IMG/VR virus record: IMGVR_UViG_3300029286_000294
Coordinates: 1-20,581 of that record
From: a virus
Reading direction: 5' to 3' (one strand)
DNA: 20,581 bases
The notes beneath the pieces were generated by a model, which worked only from the letters and a program-made list of their open reading frames with translations, did not search any database and had not been told where the DNA came from. Positions 2,902-18,985 of the stretch are shown one piece after another. The position numbers were made by a program, and so were the translations under genes. Each line of letters begins with the position of its first letter. The stretch's first letter is position 1.

Positions 2902-5394
2902 TTAGTTTCTCCAATTCTGCGATGGCATCCTCGTCTTGGAGAACTTGTCCTTGAGCATGCTCAAATGTTCTTTTAATGCAGATATATCTTCCCCGTCCAC
3001 AAGAGGTATGTGCTGTCCGCCACGGATAATCCATTGCACATCTCCCTCGGCGTGCTTCTCGCTAAATACATCCTGCCCGTAGCTCACGGGAGTACCAGCC
3101 CCCGCAGGCGCGTAAAGCCTTTCGTCAATATTAAGAGAACTGCTTCCAGGTAGCGGAGCGGAAGCATCTTCGAAGTCCCAAGGCGGTACCTCAGTCTGCG
3201 GTTTTAGGGAGTCAGGAATGCCCGTGTACGCTGGTAACGGATAGTCATCCTTTAGGACTGCTACCCAGATGCACCTGCAGAGAAAGTGAACCCGCCCCGG
3301 CTGATAGGCTGAAAAACTCCTATCTACTGCTGAGATTGTCTTGCCATCCATGCTTCGACAATAGTTACAAGTCCCTCCATCTAGAATCGAACTCCACTGA
3401 TACGCGTAAATATCCTCCGCGTATTTATTGAAAACATACTTTCTGCCCTCGTTGATATTCTCCGATATGACAAGGTTGGAAGCTGTGTATGCATTTTTGT
3501 TTACAAAAGATTTGAACGCATCGTGCAATTTCGCAACTGCTTCGCGCTCAGTAACTGCCTGGTTAGTCATAGCTAGCACCGCTGGGGCTGTCAAAGAACT
3601 TAGTAAATCCTGATATCCTTTCTGTGCGTAGAAGTGCGCCTTGTCGTATAGCTTGGTTTCTATCTCTGGTGTGGTGTAGGGTACGGTTTTCTTCAGTTCA
3701 AAAGATGCTTTGTTTTTCCCGAACTCGAATATCTTTTTTATTCCGTTTCTGAACACCCTCTCGTATTCCCCGCTAAACCTGCCCGCTATTCTCTGCAAGC
3801 TGGCGATGTCCTGATCTCTAACAGCCTTTTCAAATATGGGCAACAGATAAGCGCGCTCTTTCAGAAGAATCTTACTCAGCTCCTTGTAGAGTTTGGCTTC
3901 CTCTGTACGCATATAAGAGTCAATTTCCTCGAATCTGACTCTACTCTCTGCTTTGGTTAAATCCCTGTGCCACTTCCCCTCGTGCATCTTGGCTGGTTGT
4001 TCTTCTTTTTTCTTTTTTAAATCCTCGTCAATAGCTCCTGCATCCTGTGGGTTTTCAGGATTCCCGCTAGGCTGCTCGCTGTCACCATTCTGATAAAACG
4101 GATTAGGCGGTGGGTTTATTGTACGTTCGTGCTGTGCTTCGTTTTCCTTTTCTTTCATCTCCCTTTGCTCATCGCTCATTTCTGGCAGCTTAAGTACAGT
4201 CCGTAGGTAGTCTTCCATCTCCAAGTCTGGTGTCAATGCTCCCGCAAGGGTAAGAGTCTGAACGGCGTTGGCTAGTATATCAACCTGCGTAGAACCCAAG
4301 TCCCCATGAGTCAGCTTGGGGTAGTCGGTTACTGTAAAATTCAAGTCTACTAGAGGTACTATAAACTGGTGGTAAATCGTGTCCTCTATGTTCTTGGCTA
4401 TTGAGTCTATGGCGTTCAAAAAGAAACTGGACTGATCGGTGCTTAGTGCGTAGCTCCCTGTACTTGTGCTTCCCAACTCTACAAATTGAGCCAGCACAGA
4501 TTTTAATATCTCCCTAGTGTGATGATCTAGCATTTCCTTTGGATCCTTGATTGTGGACGCTTTCATATCTAACATCTCAATCATCCACTTGTCGGACGGG
4601 CGAATAACATAAGCCTGTTCATTGCTCCGTAGATTCTTGCCCAATTCCTCGGCTTCTGTTTTGTCTTGCGCGGTGTAACCCTCTGGTAAAGTAATGACTG
4701 GAATTCCCACTCCGTGCCTTTCGGTTGCAATAGCGTCTATCTTGTAATATTTATCTCTAAAAAACCAATGTTTGTATGCTTGTCTTAAAATAGAAGTCCC
4801 TTTCCAGTTGTCGCCCTCTTTCTGATGTACCAGTACCATTAATTTCTCTATAGGTATCTCGACATTTTTGTATAGGTTATCCTGATAGAATCTCTGGGTG
4901 ATGGACTTCAACTCTCCCTTTTCCGTGTTCCAAGAAACGATAGTCTTGGGCAATCTGGGTGCCCATTTTGTGCAGACGATCTTATTGTCCTCGAATCCAT
5001 AAACCAATTCAAAGGCGAAGTGTCCATAAGCTAACATCAGAAGGGCTTGTCTTAAATTATCGTTCCAAGGGAGTATTTCAAATAGGTTGTGCTTTACGAA
5101 CTCGGCTACTTCATCGTCTGCGGATTCCTCTGATGCAGCGGTGATATCCCACTCTGCGGATAAAAGGGGTAGATTAACAACCTGCAAAGCCATGTGAACG
5201 GAAGCATCACTCCATCTCATCTGGTTGACTGTATCGATGAGTTTGTCCCCGATTAAGTCGGCTACATATTCTCCCGTGTCTATCTGTCCTGAAAAAATGG
5301 TAGTCCCTGTGCCTCCGAGTTCTGTACTTTGTGGCACTCGTTTGGGTGTTGCAAATCTATTCGTTATCCTTTTTAGTATTGACTCATTTGGCAT
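2902..5394 (-). CDS. Portal protein (DUF935-like) fused to MuF head morphogenesis domain
   Basis: An 830-residue protein. Residues 1 to about 420 resemble the Mu gp29/DUF935 portal family: SGQIDTGEYVADLIGDKL, VHMALQVVNLPLLSAEWDI, then the long helical core that forms the dodecameric ring for DNA passage. A proline/asparagine-rich linker (about 426-470) leads to a MuF/SPP1 gp7-like domain (about 480-720), with DGGTCNYCRSMDGK at 672-685 and HFLCRC at 703-708, the conserved Cys/His signature. A short C-terminal unit, WIIRGGQHIPL, follows. The start lacks a good Shine-Dalgarno and lies three bases after the terminase stop, so it probably relies on reinitiation. The last roughly 20 codons may be out of frame: the minus-one frame reads a more natural end that stops as ATGA with the next gene. 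Portal and MuF are usually separate adjacent genes; fusions occur. Confidence 0.85.
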   Translation of the reverse strand: MPNESILKRITNRFATPKRVPQSTELGGTGTTIFSGQIDTGEYVADLIGDKLIDTVNQMRWSDASVHMALQVVNLPLLSAEWDITAASEESADDEVAEFVKHNLFEILPWNDNLRQALLMLAYGHFAFELVYGFEDNKIVCTKWAPRLPKTIVSWNTEKGELKSITQRFYQDNLYKNVEIPIEKLMVLVHQKEGDNWKGTSILRQAYKHWFFRDKYYKIDAIATERHGVGIPVITLPEGYTAQDKTEAEELGKNLRSNEQAYVIRPSDKWMIEMLDMKASTIKDPKEMLDHHTREILKSVLAQFVELGSTSTGSYALSTDQSSFFLNAIDSIAKNIEDTIYHQFIVPLVDLNFTVTDYPKLTHGDLGSTQVDILANAVQTLTLAGALTPDLEMEDYLRTVLKLPEMSDEQREMKEKENEAQHERTINPPPNPFYQNGDSEQPSGNPENPQDAGAIDEDLKKKKEEQPAKMHEGKWHRDLTKAESRVRFEEIDSYMRTEEAKLYKELSKILLKERAYLLPIFEKAVRDQDIASLQRIAGRFSGEYERVFRNGIKKIFEFGKNKASFELKKTVPYTTPEIETKLYDKAHFYAQKGYQDLLSSLTAPAVLAMTNQAVTEREAVAKLHDAFKSFVNKNAYTASNLVISENINEGRKYVFNKYAEDIYAYQWSSILDGGTCNYCRSMDGKTISAVDRSFSAYQPGRVHFLCRCIWVAVLKDDYPLPAYTGIPDSLKPQTEVPPWDFEDASAPLPGSSSLNIDERLYAPAGAGTPVSYGQDVFSEKHAEGDVQWIIRGGQHIPLVDGEDISALKEHLSMLKDKFSKTRMPSQNWRN

Positions 5395-5397
5395 ATG

Positions 5398-7014
5398 TTA
5401 GAACCTAACGTCTAATAAACCCCCAGTTATGGGTTTATTATCCTTTGTTGGTTTATTAACTACATCAGCCAAAGAGCCAGCCACAGCTCTGCTAACTGCA
5501 ATCATACCATAATTCGCAGAATGTGCATAGTGATCCGCGCCAGTTGCTATGTAATTGAACGCGTAACTTCCGTCTGGCTTCTCTACTTTCTCCTTAGCCA
5601 ACGCGCAATGATGCCTGATAAACTCCTCCACATCGTTAGTGAGCTTGGGCAACACAATATTCTTGATTTTATACTCGTCTGCCAGCACGTCAAGAGTCTC
5701 AGTTCTATGAACTACTACGTGATATTCCTTTTTCTCTTTGTCCTCTTTCCAGACTATGTGCTCTTTTTGTGTATCGTTGTAATAACAAAGCCAAACCTTA
5801 CCTGGGAACATAAGCTGGAATCTCCTAGCTGAATGCTTGTTAGGCATGGCATCTATAACGCAACTTATGACTCCGAATCTAACCATGAGATCTGGAAGTT
5901 CCTCAAAGTCTTTCAGTATCCCTATCCAAAACAACTTTTTTAGCTTGCCGTCCTTGCGCCAGACTGACACATGAAGATTGTCGCCCTGATCTACTCCCAT
6001 ATAAGTACCTTGCCCCACGCCCCGCATATCCCAACCCGCCTGAATACACTCAAGCATATCTGTTCTTTTAATGGGTAGGTTTTCTCCTGCGTACGGCTCT
6101 CCTAGTACAAAGTTCCAGAATGTCTGTTTCCATCTCTCATTTTCAAACTTTAGGAATATATCCTCCGCGCTGATCCATGGCACCATAAGTTGAGAAACAT
6201 GATAACCAGATATTTTGCTCCCCTCGTTCGTGGGCTTCCACCTGCCATCTATCCTGTCGTCATCGGTAAGCGGAGCATTACAGTAAACGCATTGATAATA
6301 TATCTCCCCGAATCCCGCCCTACCCATGTGAATAGAATCAGGAAACTTCAATACCTGCTCCTTCCCGCATTCCATACAAGTAACAAACCATTGCTTCATA
6401 TCAGAGCGCATATAAAGAGCATTTACTCCGTAGTCTGGTATCGATGGGTTAGATAGGTGAATCGTGTATTTATGTTTTGAATGGGATAGCCTTTCTTGAT
6501 AGATAGATATGATTTGTGGCTTGCTCCTGTCGGTTTCATCGTGAATGAGCATATCCGCGTCAATAGATATAGCTTGTCGCTCTCCCCATGTTCCTCTAAA
6601 GTAAATGAAAGAGTTTCCTAATTGCTTTAGTTCCACAGAGTCCACATTAACAATCCTGCTCATAAGATATGGGCTGTCCTGTATGACTGGGTTTACCCTA
6701 GACTTTGAGAACTCGTTGACATCTCCAGCTGTAGGGAAAGTATAAATAATCGAAATGGGGTTAGTATCTGCAAACCAAAGGGCTTTATTTATCCCGTAAG
6801 TAGTAAGCCCTGTCTGTGCTGCCTTTTGCACGACAATGTTTTTACTCTCGTCCTTGTAGATATCTACCAAGAACCTATGAGTAGAGAAGTCTAGCGGTTC
6901 TCCTTTAGGCGTCTTGCAGTTTGCCAGCGTCCACGTCAGTAAGTTTGCTCTTTGCGCTTCTCTTACTACGGTTTCGCTGGGTTGCAATTTCCTCAATGGC
7001 TCTGTTGTAGGCAT
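5398..7014 (-). CDS. terL: Terminase large subunit (GpA-like)
   Basis: A 538-residue DNA packaging motor with ATPase and nuclease parts. A degenerate Walker A, QKAAQTGLTT (63-72), is of the type seen in GpA-like terminases. A Walker B with acidic tail, DADMLIHDETD, lies at 152-162. A zinc knuckle uses C213, C216, C242 and C245, and SGYHVSQLMVPW follows at 269-280, a hallmark of the GpA family. The C-terminal nuclease shows candidate metal-binding aspartates in GVDQGD (340-345), VIDAMP and GADHYAHS. The ATG at 7014 has AGGAG seven bases upstream. No usable later ATG exists before residue 118, so the 110-base overlap with the small terminase gene is probably real. Packaging specificity (cos or pac) cannot be read from this. 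Confidence 0.92.
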   Translation of the reverse strand: MPTTEPLRKLQPSETVVREAQRANLLTWTLANCKTPKGEPLDFSTHRFLVDIYKDESKNIVVQKAAQTGLTTYGINKALWFADTNPISIIYTFPTAGDVNEFSKSRVNPVIQDSPYLMSRIVNVDSVELKQLGNSFIYFRGTWGERQAISIDADMLIHDETDRSKPQIISIYQERLSHSKHKYTIHLSNPSIPDYGVNALYMRSDMKQWFVTCMECGKEQVLKFPDSIHMGRAGFGEIYYQCVYCNAPLTDDDRIDGRWKPTNEGSKISGYHVSQLMVPWISAEDIFLKFENERWKQTFWNFVLGEPYAGENLPIKRTDMLECIQAGWDMRGVGQGTYMGVDQGDNLHVSVWRKDGKLKKLFWIGILKDFEELPDLMVRFGVISCVIDAMPNKHSARRFQLMFPGKVWLCYYNDTQKEHIVWKEDKEKKEYHVVVHRTETLDVLADEYKIKNIVLPKLTNDVEEFIRHHCALAKEKVEKPDGSYAFNYIATGADHYAHSANYGMIAVSRAVAGSLADVVNKPTKDNKPITGGLLDVRF

Positions 7015-7462
7015 CTATCAGCTCCTTTGGGGCATTTACGGTTAGCTTACTATCTATTGCTCCCGAATGCTCAAACTTCTCTTTTACTACATATTCTTCA
7101 GGTAAAGTCCTCTCAAGATACCATGCTGCCGAACGCCAATCCCCTCTACCGACTAAAATCTTCTTGCCATGAATATCTAATACGAAATCCCCGTTAGTGT
7201 CTTTTAGGTACTCATCTGTTGAGGCGTTTATAATCCTATTAGCTAAAGCTGTGTTTCTTTTGGCTCTAGCCCTACCCATAGACTCCAGAAACTCCAGACG
7301 CTCCTCCACAGATAATGGGTTGGCTTCGTCATCGGAAAGCCACATATAAAGTACAGATTCACTTATCCCGCACATAGTTGCTGCATCCCTGTTGGTTGCT
7401 CCCGCTTCTATATACCCGCAGAACTCGTTTCTTAACTCTGGACTGTATTTCAAGTTAGCCAT
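6905..7462 (-). CDS. terS: Terminase small subunit, helix-turn-helix
   Basis: A 185-residue DNA-recognition partner of the large terminase. A helix-turn-helix is visible at about 20-43 (AGATNRDAATMCGISESVLY). It is followed by a helical oligomerisation region (VEERLEFLESMGRARAKRNT) and the GRGDWRSAAWYLERTLPEEY segment at 105-124, typical of this group of small terminases and related phage HTH proteins. The basic tail (QRNRSKRSAKSK) is encoded within the overlap with terL. The start overlaps the stop of the glycosyltransferase gene as TAATG, which ties the packaging genes to the modification cluster in one transcript. It should bind the packaging start site. Confidence 0.82.
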   Translation of the reverse strand: MANLKYSPELRNEFCGYIEAGATNRDAATMCGISESVLYMWLSDDEANPLSVEERLEFLESMGRARAKRNTALANRIINASTDEYLKDTNGDFVLDIHGKKILVGRGDWRSAAWYLERTLPEEYVVKEKFEHSGAIDSKLTVNAPKELIDAYNRAIEEIATQRNRSKRSAKSKLTDVDAGKLQDA

Positions 7463-8139
7463 TATATTGCTATCCCTTTATATCTCAGTAACTCTTTGAA
7501 CTTTAATCTTGGCTCCATAAAGCCATCGTTAGCCACTACCTTAATAAACTTGCTATATTTACCCCATTTGTTGACAAAAGCCTCCGTAGACTTCTGCATA
7601 TATTCTTTAGTCCTGTAAGTTCCGCACCCGTCTTTATTCCAATGTTTGAATTCCATCGCGTATTCATAACTGGTAATAGGTAGAAACCCTTTGTCGAATA
7701 ACTGCATGCTTAGATCAAAATCCTCAAATAAGTCTATATTAGGATCAAAGTTTATTCCGTTTTCCATTAACACCCTGCAATTAAGATAATAAGCAGAGTA
7801 AACCCTTCCGAACAGTAAAGGTTCTTGTTTAGAATGTACCCCCACAGCATTAGAGCCTAAACATAAAAACGGCGTACTGAAACTACTCATAAGATTTGTG
7901 TGATAGTTAAACATAGTTTCTAAATCAACCTCTTTGACATATTTACCGTTTACCCTGTGCCACATACCTACTAAATCATCATCTAACATAAGAACAGTTA
8001 AGTCAGAATCAGCGTGAGTTTCCACTAAAGATTTACGAGCGTTGGCTATACCCATATTATTAACAAACAATTCCGCTCCTTGAAAAAATTTAGTTGTGGT
8101 GACTTTCTCAGGACGATTTGTTGGTATTATTACCTTCAT
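7462..8139 (-). CDS. TET-associated-type glycosyltransferase (TAGT-like)
   Basis: A 225-residue GT-A-like protein. The ATG at 8139 (MKVIIPTNRPEKV) has AAGGAG four to five bases upstream and begins at the fold's first strand; an earlier ATG at 8169 adds ten unlike residues. The visible signatures are an IPTNRPE start, NMGIANARKSL (28-38), a LDDD metal-binding motif at 52-55 and LFEDFDLSMQL (137-147). The IPT-R-P, R, DDD and EDFD series matches my recollection of TAGT proteins, described in phage loci that sugar-modify bases in DNA. It would move a sugar from a nucleotide-sugar to an acceptor, perhaps a modified base. It overlaps the radical SAM gene by 32 bases and is AT-richer than the head genes. 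A glycan-modifying GT2 enzyme is the main alternative. Confidence 0.68.
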   Translation of the reverse strand: MKVIIPTNRPEKVTTTKFFQGAELFVNNMGIANARKSLVETHADSDLTVLMLDDDLVGMWHRVNGKYVKEVDLETMFNYHTNLMSSFSTPFLCLGSNAVGVHSKQEPLLFGRVYSAYYLNCRVLMENGINFDPNIDLFEDFDLSMQLFDKGFLPITSYEYAMEFKHWNKDGCGTYRTKEYMQKSTEAFVNKWGKYSKFIKVVANDGFMEPRLKFKELLRYKGIAI

Positions 8140-9418
8140 ACTTCTCCTTATTAAATTTATAAATGACATCGTTATTTTCGTCTAATCCTGCTGGTTGCAA
8201 TATTCCGTCAAAGTAAATGGCTGGACTGGTTTTACGTGTCGGATCATTCCAAACACCTCTCATAAAATCATAAAGAGATTTAAATTTGTTGGACATATGC
8301 CCCTTTAGACTACCTTGATTAAGTCCCTGCGCTGCTCCGTAGGATACGACATCTAAATATCCGTGAAAGTTCTCGGCTATTTCGCTAAATCTTACCTCTC
8401 CATTGCGTTTAGCCATCACTATTGCCTCGGTAAACTGACAATGAGCGTAATTAGAGAAATATTTATCCTGTGGTAAACCGCAACAACTCCCATGCGCGCA
8501 TCGTTCTTTATGGTTAGCGTCGCTAATAAACAACTTCATTTCTACATCCCGCGCGGTTTCTTCCATGTCCAAAACGAATGGGCGTTTAATTTCATAATTT
8601 AACCTACGATATCCGCTTCCCCTGCTGTGTAGTCTGTAAAATTCCCATAAGTCATAACCAACTATTTTGGATAAATCCTTATATCTGGCTCTTAACTCGT
8701 CATTGGCGCGGGATTCTAAACAATAAAACTCTGTTGATACGCCGTAGGCTCCAAGGGATTTAGCATACATAATCATCTGCTTGTGTCCGTTATTTAAATT
8801 ACTCACTCCTATAATAAACGGACGGAGTCTTAGGTTAACCCCCGCAACCCCCAACTTAGCATATTCCCCTATAGCCCAAAATCTCTCTTGCGGACTGGGA
8901 ACACCCAATTCTATTTCTTCTGCCTTTTTAGGATCCAAAGTAATAATAGAAACCTTGAAATGAAAGTTTTTAGCTCCCTCAATTAAATCTCGATATCTGT
9001 TGTCTTTCAGATGCCAAACACTTTTAGAACTGAAACTTATCGGGTAATCAATATCTCTAAAGAACTTCATAAGTTGTAGAGTAATACCCATTTCCTGTTC
9101 CTTGATATCAAATGGTTCGCTTAATCCGCCCCACTGCATAGGGATTCTAGCTTTTACGTATTCCCCGAACTGTGAAGAATCAGGCTCAGTAAATATCTTC
9201 TTAACTTTCTCAACATTTACTCCCCTAATGTTTGCGTTGACATAATCATCGTAGTGCATTCTCTGAAAATAGGAAAAACAATATAGACACCCATATGAAC
9301 ACAAGTTATATGTGTCAAAAGTCATAGGCATACTACAGTCAAGAAATTCGTTGCTCCACCTAGGAGATGAGTAGTATCCTTTTTTAGCTGATGTAGTTTC
9401 CTTGTTTGAGGAAGTCAT
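8108..9418 (-). CDS. Radical SAM enzyme with extra C-terminal cysteines
   Basis: A 436-residue protein from the ATG at 9418 (GGAG nine bases upstream; an ATG at 9436 is possible). The radical SAM iron-sulphur motif CSYGCLYC is at 40-47 (C40, C44, C47). Strand-like segments follow, such as MQWGGLSEPF (94-103), LRLRPFIIGV (196-205) and a tyrosine/cysteine-rich middle, resembling spore photoproduct lyase-like members. Four more cysteines, C307, C312, C313 and C327, could bind an auxiliary cluster. It would split S-adenosylmethionine to make a radical for a hard C-H or C-C step. Lying between a ParB-like and a TAGT-like gene, a role in making or extending a modified base is inferred; the substrate is unknown. 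It is AT-rich compared with the head genes. Confidence 0.78.
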   Translation of the reverse strand: MTSSNKETTSAKKGYYSSPRWSNEFLDCSMPMTFDTYNLCSYGCLYCFSYFQRMHYDDYVNANIRGVNVEKVKKIFTEPDSSQFGEYVKARIPMQWGGLSEPFDIKEQEMGITLQLMKFFRDIDYPISFSSKSVWHLKDNRYRDLIEGAKNFHFKVSIITLDPKKAEEIELGVPSPQERFWAIGEYAKLGVAGVNLRLRPFIIGVSNLNNGHKQMIMYAKSLGAYGVSTEFYCLESRANDELRARYKDLSKIVGYDLWEFYRLHSRGSGYRRLNYEIKRPFVLDMEETARDVEMKLFISDANHKERCAHGSCCGLPQDKYFSNYAHCQFTEAIVMAKRNGEVRFSEIAENFHGYLDVVSYGAAQGLNQGSLKGHMSNKFKSLYDFMRGVWNDPTRKTSPAIYFDGILQPAGLDENNDVIYKFNKEKYEGNNTNKSS

Positions 9419-9983
9419 ATAATTTAGCTCCGTCATTGCCCTTCACAAACTTGCCGTCATTAAAGAACTTCCCTACTGCTTCCGCTTGTTCAGGATCAGC
9501 AAATGAAAATATAATCATGATAGCTTCGTTGGGTATCTCCCCGCCTGCTCCCGAGCCTCCCTCGCCTGTGCCGTAGTTGGGCGTTTCCCCTTGATTGTAA
9601 TATTGTAATTCCCACTTCTCAAAACCTGTAAGAGACAGATCTAATTTCTTTAGAGTTAAATCTGTAATAAGCTTGCCTAATTTCTCAGTATCCCACCTAC
9701 CCGTGATTCTGTTAAGAGCCAAGTTAAGCATTTTAGCTTTATCCTCTGGTAAATCAACATAAAGAACTGGTACTTTAGTCCATCCCAAAGCCTCCGAAGC
9801 TCTGACTCTCATGTGTCCCCCTATGATGGTGTTATCCTTATTTACAACGGCGGGTTCGACAAATCCGAACTCCTTAATGGAATTTTGTAGATTTATGAAA
9901 GCCTCGTCCGTGATTTCTCGGGGATTGTATTCGGCGTACTTTAATTTGCTAATCTCTACCTGAGTTACATCTGTGGTGTTCAT
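9384..9983 (-). CDS. ParB-like (ParB/sulfiredoxin-fold) protein
   Basis: A 199-residue protein. Residues 8 to 90 match the ParB N-terminal nuclease-like fold: ISKLKYAEYNPREI, a helix SIKEFGFVEPAVVN, the central IIGGHMRVRASEALGW (53-68) with the GG-H-R-R-A signature, and VPVLYVDLP. Then come a helical part and a glycine-rich linker (about 131-149), and a separate C-terminal unit, AIMIIFSFADPEQAEAV..FFNDGKFV, of unknown role. Phage ParB-like proteins of this type often sit next to DNA methyltransferases or base-modification enzymes. Here the neighbours are a radical SAM enzyme and glycosyltransferases, so sequence recognition or processing of modified DNA is inferred. The start overlaps the upstream stop as ATGA. 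No partition partner (ParA) or parS array is seen, so plasmid-type partition is unlikely. Confidence 0.8.
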   Translation of the reverse strand: MNTTDVTQVEISKLKYAEYNPREITDEAFINLQNSIKEFGFVEPAVVNKDNTIIGGHMRVRASEALGWTKVPVLYVDLPEDKAKMLNLALNRITGRWDTEKLGKLITDLTLKKLDLSLTGFEKWELQYYNQGETPNYGTGEGGSGAGGEIPNEAIMIIFSFADPEQAEAVGKFFNDGKFVKGNDGAKLYDFLKQGNYIS

Positions 9984-10162
9984 TTTTTGCCTTTCTTAAC
10001 TTTTATTCCAAAACTTATCTTGTGTCCACCCCTCAATTTAACCTCGAAACCCACATCCTTGATGTTATGCTTTTCCAATCCCTGCATAGTTAAGGTAATG
10101 AAATCTTCTAAGAACATGCCTTCCTCAGTGAGTATATACAGTGTATTATCTGTTGTTGCCAT
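9980..10162 (-). CDS. Unknown 60-residue protein in the modification cluster
   Basis: The ATG at 10162 (MATTDNTLYILTEEGMFLED) is preceded by AAGGA at about five bases; a longer frame to 10234 would run far into the upstream gene. The protein looks like a small alpha/beta domain ending in a very basic tail (KVKKGKK). I do not recognise a family. It overlaps the glycosyltransferase-methyltransferase gene by 17 bases and the ParB-like gene by ATGA, so it is coupled to both and should be made with the cluster. An accessory or DNA-binding role is possible only as a guess. Confidence 0.6.
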   Translation of the reverse strand: MATTDNTLYILTEEGMFLEDFITLTMQGLEKHNIKDVGFEVKLRGGHKISFGIKVKKGKK

Positions 10163-11567
10163 TTGTTCCTTTCTTGCAAATACCAAATAAAAACGGAGCC
10201 TCCGCCCATGACTTATCATCGGGGCGTTTGACATCTGATACTAGGCACTTCTTCTGGTAAACCTCAACCTGTCCTTTGAACGCAGCGTTCAAGAATGCCT
10301 TGTAGGTTTCCTTGTCGTACATCACCCTGTGCTCCGCTATCTCGCTGGGTGGCATGGTATTGTCTGGTACGGTGAATATAGCTAGCCCCCCCTCTTTTAA
10401 TACACGGCAAGACTCCCTTACGGTTTCAAATCTTTCTTTGTCGTCTAAATGCTCTAGAGTTTCACAAGCGATAACACAATCGTAGGAATCGCTCTGAGTA
10501 TAGGCGGTAACTCCCTCTTTTAACCAGTCAGGAAGAACACCCTCGTAGGCTATGAATCCTTTCTTCTTCATTTGTTCAACCGCATATTTAGATATATCCA
10601 TGCCGTAAATCGTAAACTTGGGGTGCTGGCTCCTTATTTCTTCCATGAGGATACCAAGTCCCGCTCCCAACTCAAGCACATTTGCATTCTCTGGCAAATC
10701 CTTTAGTAACTCGCTGGCTATAAAGGGAAACTTGCCTGGATAGGTTCGCCAGTTGAAATTCCCCTCGACTTCGGTTTTGTATACATTGTCCCAGTACCCC
10801 TCTTGGGTATTTAGGTTCTTTCCCATCGTCCTTAGATCAGCCATCTTGTCCAGTTGTAAGTCTTTTCTCCAATTAGGATATAGTTTTTGTAGATAGTTGT
10901 GAGAACCCTGTAAGGAATTCTGAGCGAACACAACTCTCATATCTTCGGGAATGTCCCAAAAGTCTCTGACTGTCCAAATCTTAGGGGCTATGTGTCCCAC
11001 CAAAACGCCTGGGTGCGCCCAAATCCTAAATCCTGCCAGCTTTGCAGCTATACAGAAATTCAAGTCCTCTGAGAACCCGTGCTTGAAATCAAACCAAGGC
11101 TCTTTTATAGCTTCCAGCACTTTGCGCGTCATAAGGATAAAACCGAACCCGCACCCGTCTATCTCAAAGGGTATCGCGCTGTCAGGTAGTTTGGCTATCG
11201 GCTCCATGACTCCGTATTGTAGGTTCAATCTTCTTATAATGGGAAGCCTATGAGAACCCGAGGCGAATTGAATACCTGTCACTATGTCAGCCCCGTGATC
11301 TAGAACGTCCATCAAAAGCTGGATGTCGTCCTTGTCCCAAATGGTGTCAGAGTCAATCCAAAGCAAATACTCCGCGTCCGTGTCCAGGAATCTTCTCGTT
11401 ATGCTGTTCCTCGCCTGCGCGTGAGGACGCTGCTCGCTTATAGGTACATACTTGGCTGGATGTCCCCCGAACATTTTCAAAAGGCACTCTATCCACTCCC
11501 AATAGAACCCATCCTTGCCTCTCGGCACTCCTATAGCAATTTTAGTTTCTGGCGTAATTTTAGGCAT
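10146..11567 (-). CDS. Glycosyltransferase-methyltransferase fusion
   Basis: A 473-residue two-domain protein. The ATG at 11567 follows GGAGAG closely. Residues 1 to about 230 form a GT-A glycosyltransferase: IAIGVPRGKDG, then ARNSITRRFL, the metal-binding LLWIDSDT at 68-75, CGFGFILMTRKV, and FSEDLNFCIAAKLAGF at 165-180. Residues about 255 to 473 form a class I SAM methyltransferase, with motif I VLELGAGLG (297-305), an acidic GMDIS loop (322-326) and CETLEHL (368-374). The two activities in one chain suggest that a sugar is added and then methylated, or that both act on one product. It is richer in GC than the radical SAM/TAGT pair downstream, hinting at a mosaic origin. The acceptor may be DNA, a nucleotide or a surface glycan; sequence alone does not decide. 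Confidence 0.8.
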   Translation of the reverse strand: MPKITPETKIAIGVPRGKDGFYWEWIECLLKMFGGHPAKYVPISEQRPHAQARNSITRRFLDTDAEYLLWIDSDTIWDKDDIQLLMDVLDHGADIVTGIQFASGSHRLPIIRRLNLQYGVMEPIAKLPDSAIPFEIDGCGFGFILMTRKVLEAIKEPWFDFKHGFSEDLNFCIAAKLAGFRIWAHPGVLVGHIAPKIWTVRDFWDIPEDMRVVFAQNSLQGSHNYLQKLYPNWRKDLQLDKMADLRTMGKNLNTQEGYWDNVYKTEVEGNFNWRTYPGKFPFIASELLKDLPENANVLELGAGLGILMEEIRSQHPKFTIYGMDISKYAVEQMKKKGFIAYEGVLPDWLKEGVTAYTQSDSYDCVIACETLEHLDDKERFETVRESCRVLKEGGLAIFTVPDNTMPPSEIAEHRVMYDKETYKAFLNAAFKGQVEVYQKKCLVSDVKRPDDKSWAEAPFLFGICKKGTNGNNR

Positions 11568-12198
11568 TTTCTCTCCTTTTCCATAAATAACCCTGTACAT
11601 TATAAAAATAAGGCGTCAAGTCGGGATGGCTGATGTGTTCAGGAAACATATACGTGTACTTTATCAGTTCGGGATTGCTTATAAGGTAGGTACAATGTTT
11701 AGCCATGTCCTTAATGACTGGCTCGGGATCTGGCAAATGCTCTAAGACGTCCATAGCGACAATCAAGTCGAAATCCCTGTCTATTTTGTAACCCTCGCCT
11801 TCTATGGTGGGCTGTACATTGTGCTTAGCAAAACGATAGTTGGCGTACACCATAGTCCTGCTGTTCCAGACATCGGTATAAGTGGTGTCCGCGCCCTCTT
11901 TACAGGCGACAATCGTGTACTCCCCTATTCCCCCACCGTAATCCAGTACAGACTTAATATTGTAGTTTCTGATAAACTGAGCCAACCAATTATGAAAGTC
12001 CTTTTCTTGCAAACGAGTTTGGTATCTGGATAACCCAAAGATGTACAAATCGGTTTCCTTGTAGTATTCCAAAACCCTGTCCTTGTAACTGGGAAACAGC
12101 CATGCGAGTTCGGTTGAAGCACACAAACACCTAGCCTCAACCAGTTGTCTGTCCCTCTGACAGTATTCTGCCAACTCCGCGTAAAAATCTGTTGTCAT
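11560..12198 (-). CDS. Class I SAM-dependent methyltransferase
   Basis: A 212-residue protein. The SAM-binding motif I, SVLDYGGGIGEYT, is at 83-95, followed by a TYTDVW acidic strand end (106-111), and a DLIVAMDVLEHLPDPEP motif (144-160) of the type seen in small-molecule and glycan methyltransferases rather than base-specific DNA methyltransferases (no DPPY or PCQ motif). The N-terminal helical part (about 1-70) is unlike the usual fold and may recognise substrate. It lies directly upstream of the glycosyltransferase-methyltransferase fusion with an eight-base overlap, so the two should be co-translated and probably act in one pathway. Confidence 0.78.
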   Translation of the reverse strand: MTTDFYAELAEYCQRDRQLVEARCLCASTELAWLFPSYKDRVLEYYKETDLYIFGLSRYQTRLQEKDFHNWLAQFIRNYNIKSVLDYGGGIGEYTIVACKEGADTTYTDVWNSRTMVYANYRFAKHNVQPTIEGEGYKIDRDFDLIVAMDVLEHLPDPEPVIKDMAKHCTYLISNPELIKYTYMFPEHISHPDLTPYFYNVQGYLWKRRENA

Positions 12199-17580: not shown

Positions 17581-18293
17581 TACAAATCCTTTTTCTTGCT
17601 CTCTAGCAGTTTTCTCAGGTAGGCTATTTGCTTTCCGCCAACCTTGCCTACTAAAGCAGTAACCATTCTATCTACACTTTCGGCTTCCGCTTTGTTGGTT
17701 ATGCCCGCTATCGCAGTAATTTCCTTTTCAACCTCTTTTAACTCTGCTCCCGTTATCTGAGGCATAGTCGCACTAACGACAGGATCAACTGCTGGCTCTT
17801 CAACAGGGCGGTAATCCTCGTCAATCGTACCCTCGTAGGCATCAGCCCCTACTCCGAATAATGCAGCGGTTTTCTTGAAAGCGTTTGTGTAAGCACCCTT
17901 CATGGCATCAGCGTGGGTGGAACTTTGATGTCCCCCGTAACAATGCCTCGCATCCACAACCTGCCTATTGTCGTCAAGAAATAGAAGCGAGAGCCTCCCT
18001 GCATACTCGTAATATATCTGTCCGCTCTTGCTCGGATATTCCTTTAACATTTTAATCTCATCTTGAGTTGTCCAATGTAAACCGAACTTGGGAAGAACTT
18101 CGTTTAATCGGTTTACTACAAATTGATATCCGTAACCAGTCGTATCATAACCCTTGCGAGTTACTTCCTTTTTTGTTCTCTCTACACAATTTTCCCCGTA
18201 AACTTCTTTCAGAGATTTCTTTAACTCATCAAAAAGAGCGGGGTTAGGTTGACTTTTAATTTTGTCCATTTCTGGAATCTTTGTATCAGGCAT
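17580..18293 (-). CDS. Rad52/Rad22-like single-strand annealing protein
   Basis: A 237-residue recombinase. The core is visible at about 25-155: ELKKSLKEVYG, then DTTGYGYQFVVNRLNEVLPK (50-69), FGLHW, a YYEYAGRLSLLFLDD strand pair, and GGHQSSTHADAMKGAYTNAF (120-139) followed by KKTAALFGVG. This TGYGYQFV...R-LNEV and GHQSS-H-DA-KGA-TNA-KK-A--FG pattern fits the Rad52/Rad22 annealing family of phages. The C-terminal part, after an acidic proline-containing linker, is helical and may bind partners. It pairs with the RecB-like exonuclease next to it. A GAGGAG lies seven bases before the ATG; it overlaps the upstream gene by eight bases. Confidence 0.88.
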   Translation of the reverse strand: MPDTKIPEMDKIKSQPNPALFDELKKSLKEVYGENCVERTKKEVTRKGYDTTGYGYQFVVNRLNEVLPKFGLHWTTQDEIKMLKEYPSKSGQIYYEYAGRLSLLFLDDNRQVVDARHCYGGHQSSTHADAMKGAYTNAFKKTAALFGVGADAYEGTIDEDYRPVEEPAVDPVVSATMPQITGAELKEVEKEITAIAGITNKAEAESVDRMVTALVGKVGGKQIAYLRKLLESKKKDL

Positions 18294-18486
18294 TTCGTGT
18301 CTCCTCTGGCAGTTCAGTAACCATAGGGTACTGATCTACGTCTAATTTAATACTGTGATGCAGTTTCTCTATGTTTTCTACTAACTCTTTGACTTTTGTT
18401 AGATGAATCGATTTGGCTTTGTCTGTGTCTTCCGTGTTGACTAATGTAACAACTTGAATATTGGATCTAACCGTATATTTATTCAT
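18286..18486 (-). CDS. Small protein sharing a cassette with its neighbour
   Basis: A 66-residue protein starting MNKYTVRSNIQ. Residues about 12-41 (VVTLVNTEDTDKAKS and on to LVENIEK) are identical in protein and DNA to the middle of the 18611-18985 protein. The rest, LHHSIKLDVDQYPMVTELPE, is unique. It is the first gene after the strong promoter at 18512-18539, and GGCGGTG lies before the ATG. No known family. The shared segment is helical. It is not clear which gene the cassette came from. Confidence 0.55.
   Translation of the reverse strand: MNKYTVRSNIQVVTLVNTEDTDKAKSIHLTKVKELVENIEKLHHSIKLDVDQYPMVTELPEETRNA
18363..18454. repeat. Direct repeat S, copy 1 (92 bp, identical)
   Basis: This 92-base segment is identical, base for base, to 18715-18806. 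It encodes the same 30 residues in the same frame in both genes. The identity suggests a recent transfer between the two genes, or an assembly artefact. Confidence 0.9.
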
Positions 18487-18560: not shown

Positions 18561-18619
18561 GGTGAGTAAAACTCTAGATAGACAAGATTCTATCCAGCCA
18601 AACCTTAGTCCTACTCACC
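18561..18619 (-). other. Inverted repeat with inner hairpin near the end of the upstream gene
   Basis: GGTGAGTA and TACTCACC (8 bp) enclose a second stem GATAGA/TCTATC with a six-base loop. The outer right arm lies at the stop codon of the 18611 gene and the structure ends about 20 bases upstream of the -35 at 18534-18539. It has no clear T-run on the minus strand. It could be a terminator-like or operator structure between two transcripts. It is 59 bases long, like the one at 13156-13214, but the sequences are unrelated. Confidence 0.45.
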
Positions 18620-18985
18620 CTCTCCCGCCTTCATAACTTCGTGGGTAAATCCGTTGGCAACACCCTTGAAGTCGTACTTGCTATCCCCACCCCAAAAACC
18701 CTTAGAATATACCTGTTTCTCTATGTTTTCTACTAACTCTTTGACTTTTGTTAGATGAATCGATTTGGCTTTGTCTGTGTCTTCCGTGTTGACTAATGTA
18801 ACAACTCCCGCCTTCATAACTTCGTGGGTAAATCCGTTGGCAATATCCTTGATTTCGTACTTGCTAACCCCATCCCAAAAACCCTTAGAATATACCTGTT
18901 TTACAATCCACTTCACAATCTTGATCTGCTCCCTCTCTAACTTCATCAGCCATACTATTCCGTTGTAATGTTCGTCAAAAGACAT
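18611..18985 (-). CDS. Repeat-built protein R-S-R, unknown function
   Basis: A 124-residue protein. After an N-terminal MSFDEHYNGIVWLMKLEREQ and a short helix comes a roughly 31-residue unit beginning QVYSKGFWDGVSKYEIKD and ending GFTHEVMKAG; then a 30-residue unit identical to part of the neighbour protein (VVTLVNTEDTDKAKS and on); then a second copy of the first unit, QVYSKGFWGGDSKYDFKG, ending MKAGEGE. The frame stays open throughout. The start is coupled to the upstream stop (TAATATG) with no Shine-Dalgarno. No family is recognised. The gene may have grown by duplication and cassette insertion, or the assembly may have merged two variants. Confidence 0.6.
   Translation of the reverse strand: MSFDEHYNGIVWLMKLEREQIKIVKWIVKQVYSKGFWDGVSKYEIKDIANGFTHEVMKAGVVTLVNTEDTDKAKSIHLTKVKELVENIEKQVYSKGFWGGDSKYDFKGVANGFTHEVMKAGEGE
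18622..18718. repeat. Direct repeat R, copy 1
   Basis: A 97-base unit repeated at 18805-18901 with six mismatches by eye (91 of 97 identical). It encodes the QVYSKGFW...MKAG unit near the C-terminus. It abuts the S repeat, sharing four bases (GTTT) at the border. Confidence 0.85.
18715..18806. repeat. Direct repeat S, copy 2 (92 bp, identical)
   Basis: Second copy of the 92-base segment at 18363-18454, placed exactly between the two R copies. It shares GTTT with one R copy and CT with the other, as if joined at short microhomologies. Confidence 0.9.
18805..18901. repeat. Direct repeat R, copy 2
   Basis: Second copy of the 97-base R unit (offset 183 bases, a multiple of three). It encodes the first QVYSKGFW...MKAG unit. 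The six changes against copy 1 alter several residues (for example FWDGVSKYEI against FWGGDSKYDF), so the copies are older than the S copies. Confidence 0.85.

What the first reader, a model, noticed from the sequence alone, without database searches (positions are those of the whole stretch)
7462..12198. Possible new phage DNA hypermodification cluster: ParB-like, radical SAM and TAGT-like enzymes with a GT-methyltransferase fusion
Six coupled genes sit directly before the terminase genes: a SAM methyltransferase, a glycosyltransferase-methyltransferase fusion, a 60-residue unknown, a ParB-like protein, a radical SAM enzyme and a TAGT-like glycosyltransferase. ParB-like, radical SAM and TAGT proteins are known parts of phage loci that oxidise and sugar-modify bases, usually with a TET/JBP oxygenase. 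No oxygenase, deoxynucleotide hydroxymethylase or kinase is visible here, so the radical SAM enzyme may do the step that creates or extends the acceptor group. The glycosyltransferase-methyltransferase fusion would then finish the sugar. Function is inferred from motifs and order.
Basis: partly seen in the sequence, partly recalled or inferred. Interest (0 to 1): 0.8.

Follow-up and report, generated by a model that had tools for sequence, protein, structure and literature searches.

The report
Oxygen-free phage DNA-modification cassette
This phage carries a DNA-decorating gene cassette in which an iron-sulfur radical enzyme, structurally closest to an enzyme that acts on thymine in DNA, appears to replace the oxygen-using or folate-using enzyme that normally makes the attachment point for sugars; this would explain how viruses of gut anaerobes disguise their DNA without oxygen.

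Summary
The six genes are present at the stated coordinates. Three of them (ParB-like, radical SAM, TAGT glycosyltransferase) form a recurring phage module; the GT-methyltransferase fusion, small ORF and lone methyltransferase are backbone or unplaced genes. The radical SAM protein belongs to a full-length family found in about 55 phage or prophage loci. Its neighbour is either a TAGT (20 of 57 loci) or a 5-hmdU-kinase-like enzyme and/or amino acid:DNA transferase (25 of 57), never both. Two related phages encode a TAGT-radical SAM fusion. No thymidylate-synthase-type hydroxymethylase or TET/JBP oxygenase was found in any radical-SAM record; other TAGT loci carry one or the other (39 and 11 of 80, never both). 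The best solved structural match is spore photoproduct lyase, which acts on thymine in DNA. Hosts of prophage copies are nearly all gut or rumen anaerobes. Best explanation (about 0.6): the radical SAM enzyme oxidises the 5-methyl of thymine (less likely 5-methylcytosine) in DNA to a hydroxymethyl acceptor without O2, and TAGT glycosylates it. Chemistry and modified base are inferred, not shown. A TAGT clade with no visible acceptor maker is the main caveat. New variant of phage DNA hypermodification.

The parts
7462..8139 (-). TAGT-family DNA glycosyltransferase (225 aa; start 8139 has a good ribosome-binding site), predicted to put a sugar on the hydroxyl made upstream
   Evidence: PF20691 E=2.4e-8 above gathering score; phrog_842 E=2.8e-15; DDD motif at residues 53-55, D140 and G170-G171 conserved; closest relatives sit beside pyrimidine hydroxymethylase or TET genes
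8108..9436 (-). Radical SAM enzyme (442 aa), predicted maker of the 5-hydroxymethyl acceptor; overlaps the TAGT start by 32 nt
   Evidence: CX3CX2C at C46/C50/C53 plus C34, C239, C318, C319 conserved in 51-53 of 53 relatives; AF2 pLDDT 90.2; Foldseek PDB best hit spore photoproduct lyase, E 5e-7; neighbour statistics; TAGT fusion in relatives
9384..9983 (-). ParB-like protein directly upstream of the radical SAM gene; role unknown (DNA targeting, nuclease or NTPase)
   Evidence: ParB_N E=5.9e-11; present in 49 of 57 family loci, but also beside 41 of 52 control radical SAM genes, so not specific
9980..10162 (-). 60-aa ORF, unknown; not a recurrent partner
   Evidence: no family match; no homologue detected in L008 or L009
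10146..11600 (-). GT2 glycosyltransferase-methyltransferase fusion (start 11567 or 11600); backbone gene of this phage group, role open
   Evidence: Glycos_transf_2 E=1.5e-8 and Methyltransf_23 E=1.7e-14; homologues in L008 and L009, the latter without a TAGT
11560..12198 (-). Stand-alone SAM methyltransferase, role open, not found in sister phages
   Evidence: Methyltransf_23 E=3.5e-10; no homologue detected in L008 or L009
6905..7462 (-). Terminase small subunit (context)
   Evidence: phrog_4102 E=2.6e-18
5398..7014 (-). Terminase large subunit (context)
   Evidence: phrog_675 E=5e-119

Best explanation
A phage DNA-hypermodification cassette for anaerobic hosts. After replication, the radical SAM enzyme acts on a 5-methylpyrimidine in phage DNA, most likely thymine. 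A 5'-deoxyadenosyl radical takes a hydrogen from the 5-methyl group; the resulting allylic radical is oxidised (perhaps by an auxiliary Fe-S cluster on C34, C239, C318 and C319) and trapped by water to give 5-hydroxymethyluracil. TAGT then glycosylates that hydroxyl, giving a base-J-like sugar-modified base that hides the genome from nucleases. In sister phages the same hydroxyl is instead phosphorylated by a 5-hmdU-kinase-like enzyme and replaced by an amino acid. Shown: family membership, neighbour statistics, exclusion patterns, fusion, fold. Inferred: the reaction, the substrate base, the source of oxygen, the sugar, and the role of ParB.
For: Full-length relatives of the radical SAM gene occur in about 55 phage or prophage loci. 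Of 57 loci, 20 have TAGT within 4 kb, 25 have a 5-hmdU-kinase-like and/or ADDT gene, 12 have neither, 0 have both; 0 of 52 control phage radical SAM loci have any of these. Curated matches support the local models: TAGT PF20691 in 12 of 26 records, HMUDK PF18748 and ADDT PF18724. On the radical SAM tree the partner switches an estimated 14 times, at least 9 on well-supported branches: different decorators, one shared acceptor. TAGT-radical SAM fusion protein in L010 and L011. No ThyA-type hydroxymethylase or TET in radical SAM records, by Pfam search and by local HMMs over held and fetched stretches. Of 80 TAGT loci 39 carry a hydroxymethylase and 11 a TET, never both; two more carry this radical SAM and neither. 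0 of 14 against 29 of 48, Fisher p=3e-5 (relatedness ignored). Sister phage L009 (56% identical rSAM, same terminase, portal and ParB) has a kinase where the window and L008 have TAGT. Nearest solved fold is spore photoproduct lyase. Known ViI/M6/phiW-14 pathways start from 5hmdU in DNA, then 5hmdU DNA kinase (PMC6449724). No C5-MTase in the viral radical SAM records and one in the loci searched (L216), favouring thymine over 5mC. Hosts of 29 of 32 full-length genome copies are anaerobic gut or rumen lineages.
Against: No biochemistry; the modified base is unknown. A separate TAGT clade (28 of 80 loci) sits between ParB and terminase with no hydroxymethylase, TET or this radical SAM, so TAGT can occur with no visible acceptor maker. 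All records are incomplete or of unknown completeness; window and relatives could carry an undetected maker such as a ThyX-type enzyme or another oxygenase (not tested family by family). The genome search missed an ADDT in L029 that hmmscan found, so its negatives are imperfect. I know of no radical SAM enzyme shown to hydroxylate a DNA base. The tree is a quick one with many weak forks.
Confidence: 0.6

Rival explanations
1. DNA hypermodification, but the radical SAM enzyme acts elsewhere in the pathway (for example remodelling an already hydroxymethylated or substituted base), and the hydroxymethyl group comes from an undetected phage enzyme or the host.
For: From memory, a radical SAM step has been proposed in a known thymidine hypermodification pathway; contigs are incomplete; TAGT loci without any visible acceptor maker exist.
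Against: One enzyme family pairs with two chemically different decorators, TAGT or kinase/ADDT, that share only the need for a hydroxyl; no hydroxymethylase or TET in any radical SAM record, including 57-kb and 137-kb contigs.
Confidence: 0.22
2. The radical SAM protein is a thymine-dimer lyase or other repair enzyme that merely travels with modification genes in phage cargo next to the terminase.
For: Best structural match is spore photoproduct lyase; other radical SAM genes also sit beside ParB in phages.
Against: TAGT-radical SAM fusion; strict one-or-the-other pairing with TAGT or kinase/ADDT in 45 of 57 loci against 0 of 52 controls; four conserved extra cysteines, for which I know no counterpart in spore photoproduct lyase.
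Confidence: 0.08
3. The glycosyltransferases act on surface glycans or virion proteins and the radical SAM enzyme serves that pathway.
For: The GT2-MT fusion resembles phage glycosyltransferases of unknown acceptor; TAGT is a GT-A fold related to GT2 (PMC13216743); the TAGT model matched only carbohydrate enzymes, weakly.
Against: Sister loci swap TAGT for 5-hmdU DNA kinase and amino acid:DNA transferase homologues; nearest TAGT relatives sit beside pyrimidine hydroxymethylase or TET genes.
Confidence: 0.05
4. The substrate is 5-methylcytosine rather than thymine, i.e. a TET-like 5mC to 5hmC step followed by glycosylation (a sub-case of the main explanation, differing in the base).
For: T6 TAGT acts on glucosylated 5-hmC in DNA (PMC13216743); one prophage locus (L216) has a C5-methyltransferase.
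Against: No C5-methyltransferase in the 26 viral radical SAM records, while the search rang in control genomes; kinase and ADDT partners belong to thymidine pathways (PMC6449724).
Confidence: 0.15

Closest known systems
TET/JBP-TAGT phage DNA glycosylation loci
   Same: TAGT glycosyltransferase with an enzyme that can oxidise a 5-methylpyrimidine in DNA; found at the same kind of locus
   Different: Radical SAM enzyme instead of an O2- and 2-oxoglutarate-dependent dioxygenase; no TET in any radical SAM record
T-even phages (T6): dCMP hydroxymethylase, alpha-GT and TAGT
   Same: TAGT family PF20691 acting on hydroxymethyl-pyrimidine DNA (PMC13216743)
   Different: No hydroxymethylase seen; acceptor would be made on DNA, not in the nucleotide pool
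ViI / M6 / phiW-14 thymidine hypermodification (5-hmdU, 5-hmdU DNA kinase, amino acid or amine transfer)
   Same: Sister radical SAM loci carry kinase and ADDT homologues (and a PLP-like enzyme in L029)
   Different: No 5-hmdUMP-making hydroxymethylase; radical SAM enzyme in its place
Kinetoplastid base J (JBP1/2 and JGT)
   Same: Proposed logic: oxidise thymine in DNA, then glycosylate
   Different: Oxygen-independent chemistry; unrelated oxidase family
Spore photoproduct lyase (SplB)
   Same: Radical SAM fold, best PDB match; acts on the thymine methyl region in DNA
   Different: 17% identity; four extra conserved cysteines and a long C-terminal part; genomic context is base modification, not repair
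PA0069-family radical SAM proteins
   Same: Nearest curated sequence family for the N-terminal half (39 bits)
   Different: Far below that family's cut-off of 360 bits; a separate family

Membership tests
TAGT glycosyltransferases (PF20691) | Match to the curated profile above gathering score | tested here: met
   34.6 bits against 27.5
TAGT glycosyltransferases (PF20691) | Acidic metal-binding motif and conserved C-terminal GG motif | tested here: met
   D53-D55, D140, G170-G171 conserved
TAGT glycosyltransferases (PF20691) | GT-A fold | tested here: inconclusive
   Model pLDDT 76; only weak PDB matches, best a fucosyltransferase at E 0.008
TET/JBP-type DNA hypermodification system | TET/JBP dioxygenase present | tested here: not met
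   No PF12851 in 26 radical SAM records nor by local HMM; the same search found TETs in 6 of 50 TAGT records
Hydroxymethylase-type systems (T-even, SPO1, ViI, M6) | Thymidylate-synthase-family hydroxymethylase present | tested here: not met
   0 of 26 by PF00303 and none by local HMM over held and fetched stretches; 23 of 50 TAGT records positive. The window itself is a fragment
Radical SAM superfamily | CX3CX2C cluster motif and radical SAM fold | tested here: met
   C46/C50/C53 invariant; PDB matches are radical SAM enzymes
Spore photoproduct lyase | Close sequence similarity and context with spore or photoproduct repair | tested here: not met
   No PDB sequence match at E<1; structure match at 17% identity; context is DNA modification
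Spore photoproduct lyase | Repairs thymine dimers | not testable with these tools
   needs biochemistry
Phage DNA hypermodification cassettes | Modified base present in virion DNA | not testable with these tools
   needs nucleoside LC-MS
Phage DNA hypermodification cassettes | Neighbourhood carries base-decorating enzymes | tested here: met
   TAGT in the window; TAGT or kinase/ADDT in 45 of 57 loci, window included

The most novel reading that the evidence does not exclude
A radical SAM enzyme family is an oxygen-independent functional counterpart of TET/JBP: it converts thymine (or 5-methylcytosine) in DNA to the 5-hydroxymethyl base with water as the oxygen source, feeding interchangeable glycosylation or kinase/aminoacylation branches in phages of strict anaerobes.
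Probability: 0.5. Interest if true: 0.93.

Novelty: new variant of a known kind. Interest (0 to 1): 0.8.

Why it matters
The routes I know to a hydroxymethyl group on DNA pyrimidines use either O2 (TET/JBP) or a folate-dependent hydroxymethylase on the nucleotide. An O2-free, DNA-level route would be a new kind of DNA base oxidation, would explain how phages of gut and rumen anaerobes hypermodify DNA, and would offer a TET-like tool that works anaerobically. It is directly testable because prophage copies sit in cultured strains (Bacteroides fragilis S82, Selenomonas ruminantium S137).

Tried and rejected
Single-sequence searches with the radical SAM, TAGT or TerL protein found no relatives of use in viral contigs or genome contigs, and none for the first two in phages at E 1e-5, because short patterns of one divergent sequence miss the family; alignments solved this. 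Surface-glycan reading: rejected on context. ParB as evidence for modification: rejected, since it is about as common beside unrelated phage radical SAM genes. GT-MT fusion as sugar finisher: not supported (kept in L009 without TAGT). TAGT fold search was uninformative. The weak hydroxymethylase-model hit in L188 (E 0.013, 13.6 bits) was judged chance. A host base-rate test within Bacteroidia returned only the query genome in 395: the gene is rare and the test gave no contrast. Literature searches found no report of this pairing, but several key papers I tried (among them Iyer 2013, Lee 2018, Pyle 2024) are not held in the library, so prior mention cannot be excluded.
Full report
OBSERVATION. 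The window is a complete IMG/VR contig of 20,581 bp, a fragment of a tailed phage. Its recognisable genes read on the - strand: replication and recombination genes, NinG, an 84-aa ORF, then MT, GT2-MT fusion, a 60-aa ORF, ParB-like, radical SAM, TAGT, TerS, TerL, portal-head fusion and protease. The 7462-8139 protein passes the TAGT gathering score and matches phrog_842, the T6-type beta-glucosyl-HMC-alpha-glucosyltransferase. The radical SAM protein has no own Pfam hit but a weak PA0069-type match.

FAMILY. Aligning the radical SAM protein with two weak gut-phage relatives and scanning viral contigs gave L007-L034, 28 loci nearly all with full-length homologues, 26-57% identical. A second scan with the family alignment found 34 loci in bacterial and archaeal genomes, 32 full-length. 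Across 53 relatives the three cluster cysteines C46, C50, C53 and also C34, C318 and C319 are invariant, and C239 is kept in 51: enough for a second Fe-S cluster, though this is inference. AlphaFold2 gave a confident model (pLDDT 90.2). Its best matches in the PDB are two spore photoproduct lyase structures (4k9r, 4fhf, E about 5e-7, 17% identity), from the radical SAM enzyme that repairs thymine dimers in DNA.

NEIGHBOURS. With profile models built here and checked against Pfam on examples, the 57 non-redundant loci divide into 20 with TAGT, 25 with a 5-hmdU-kinase-like P-loop enzyme and/or ADDT, and 12 with neither (several at contig ends or distant members); none has both. Curated models agree: PF20691 in 12 of 26 viral records, PF18748 and PF18724 in others; many kinases match only general P-loop models, so 'kinase-like' is the safe term. 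As a control, 52 other phage radical SAM loci from the same scan have none of these partners. L010 and L011 encode a single 698-aa TAGT-radical SAM fusion. L029 combines radical SAM with ADDT (E 9e-22), a P-loop kinase and what looks from its sequence like a PLP-dependent enzyme. On a radical SAM tree the partner type changes about 14 times, at least 9 on well-supported branches. The window's own clade shows it: L008 has TAGT, L009 has a kinase-like gene, with the same ParB, terminase, portal and GT-MT gene. Both partner types need a hydroxyl on the base, so the shared enzyme most simply makes that hydroxyl.

ABSENCE OF THE USUAL ACCEPTOR MAKERS. PF00303 (hydroxymethylases) and PF12851 (TET/JBP) have no match in 26 radical SAM records. 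Because genome search missed one ADDT later found by hmmscan, I fetched the remaining stretches of many of these contigs and searched with models trained on TAGT-linked hydroxymethylases and TETs: no significant match. The nearest relative with a long contig, L008 (44 kb), showed no hydroxymethylase or oxygenase among the best-matched families of 49 of its proteins, though only 25 families per library were listed. In 80 TAGT loci found independently of the radical SAM gene, 39 have a hydroxymethylase and 11 a TET, never both; two more (contigs of 137 kb and 57 kb) carry this radical SAM gene and neither of the others. Whole-record comparison: 0 of 14 radical SAM+TAGT records against 29 of 48 others, p=3e-5, or 0 of 10 non-redundant records of at least 20 kb, p=8e-4; relatedness is ignored.

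A COMPLICATION. The other 28 TAGT loci have no recognised maker. All that enter the tree form one TAGT clade, and the four inspected lie between ParB and terminase genes. Either they rely on an unknown maker or that clade glycosylates something else. The window's TAGT groups, weakly, with the hydroxymethylase/TET-linked clade, most identical (26%) to a TET-linked one; most other radical-SAM-linked TAGTs form a clade nearer the unexplained one. So TAGT presence alone is not proof of an acceptor.

SUBSTRATE AND HOSTS. C5-methyltransferase PF00145 is absent from the viral radical SAM records and a homologue was found in only one locus (L216), so thymine is the likelier substrate, as for the 5hmdU pathways in which 5hmdU in DNA is phosphorylated and then further modified (PMC6449724). 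Of 32 full-length genome copies, 29 are in Bacteroidales, Clostridia, Negativicutes, Coriobacteriia, Victivallales, Spirochaetaceae, Methanobrevibacter or other gut and rumen lineages; the exceptions are unplaced or candidate-phylum genomes. That these lineages are mostly strict anaerobes, where TET could not work, is general knowledge. No formal base rate was obtained: only the query genome itself was positive in 395 Bacteroidia genomes. Cultured carriers are B. fragilis S82 (ParB-like, ADDT, kinase-like, radical SAM, then terminase-like genes) and S. ruminantium S137.

MECHANISM PROPOSED. Radical abstraction of a methyl hydrogen, oxidation of the allylic radical, capture by water, then glycosylation by TAGT. 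Shown: gene content, co-occurrence, exclusion, fusion, fold. Inferred: reaction, base, oxygen source, sugar, order of steps. ParB may target or guard the reaction but its link is unspecific. The GT-MT fusion is a phage-group gene that stays when TAGT is absent (L009), so its role is open.

VERDICT. Phage DNA hypermodification is very likely; the radical SAM enzyme as maker of the acceptor is the best-supported explanation (about 0.6) and would be new in kind as a reaction, within a known kind of system. I found no earlier report, but the central papers are not in the library I could read.

Noticed in passing
L035-L086 and L010, L011, L013, L016, L019, L023: Other phage radical SAM genes, including a shorter family (about 280 aa), also sit beside ParB-like genes (41 of 52 control loci), sometimes next to the first family; function unknown.
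   Followed up: partly
L112, L113 (radical SAM gene; pieces in L167-L170): An intein-like insertion begins exactly at the third cysteine of the CX3CX2C motif; its middle is frame-broken, perhaps an endonuclease domain.
   Followed up: partly
L100, L117, L127, L139 and others (28 of 80 TAGT loci): A TAGT clade lies between ParB and terminase genes with no recognised hydroxymethylase, TET or radical SAM gene; acceptor unknown.
   Followed up: partly
L010, L011, L015, L019, L225, L227, L231: S-adenosylmethionine synthetase-like gene right beside the radical SAM gene, perhaps to supply its cofactor.
   Followed up: no
L017 7745-9276: HAD/kinase-like protein and a cytidylyltransferase next to TAGT, possibly for making a nucleotide-activated sugar or polyol.
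   Followed up: no
L029 5879-8663: Apparent PLP-dependent enzyme, ADDT and P-loop kinase in a row upstream of ParB and radical SAM: a ViI/M6-like branch with the radical SAM enzyme in place of the hydroxymethylase.
   Followed up: partly
window 18286-18486 and 18611-18985: The peptide VTLVNTEDTDKAKSIHLTKVKELVENIEK is repeated in two neighbouring small ORFs, a local duplication.
   Followed up: no
window 2902-5394: 830-aa protein matching portal over residues 13-472 and head-morphogenesis families over its C-terminal part.
   Followed up: no
L216 3501-5188: The B. fragilis S82 prophage also has a C5-cytosine methyltransferase-like gene and, just before it, a gene that looks like a DUF2400-type protein.
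   Followed up: no
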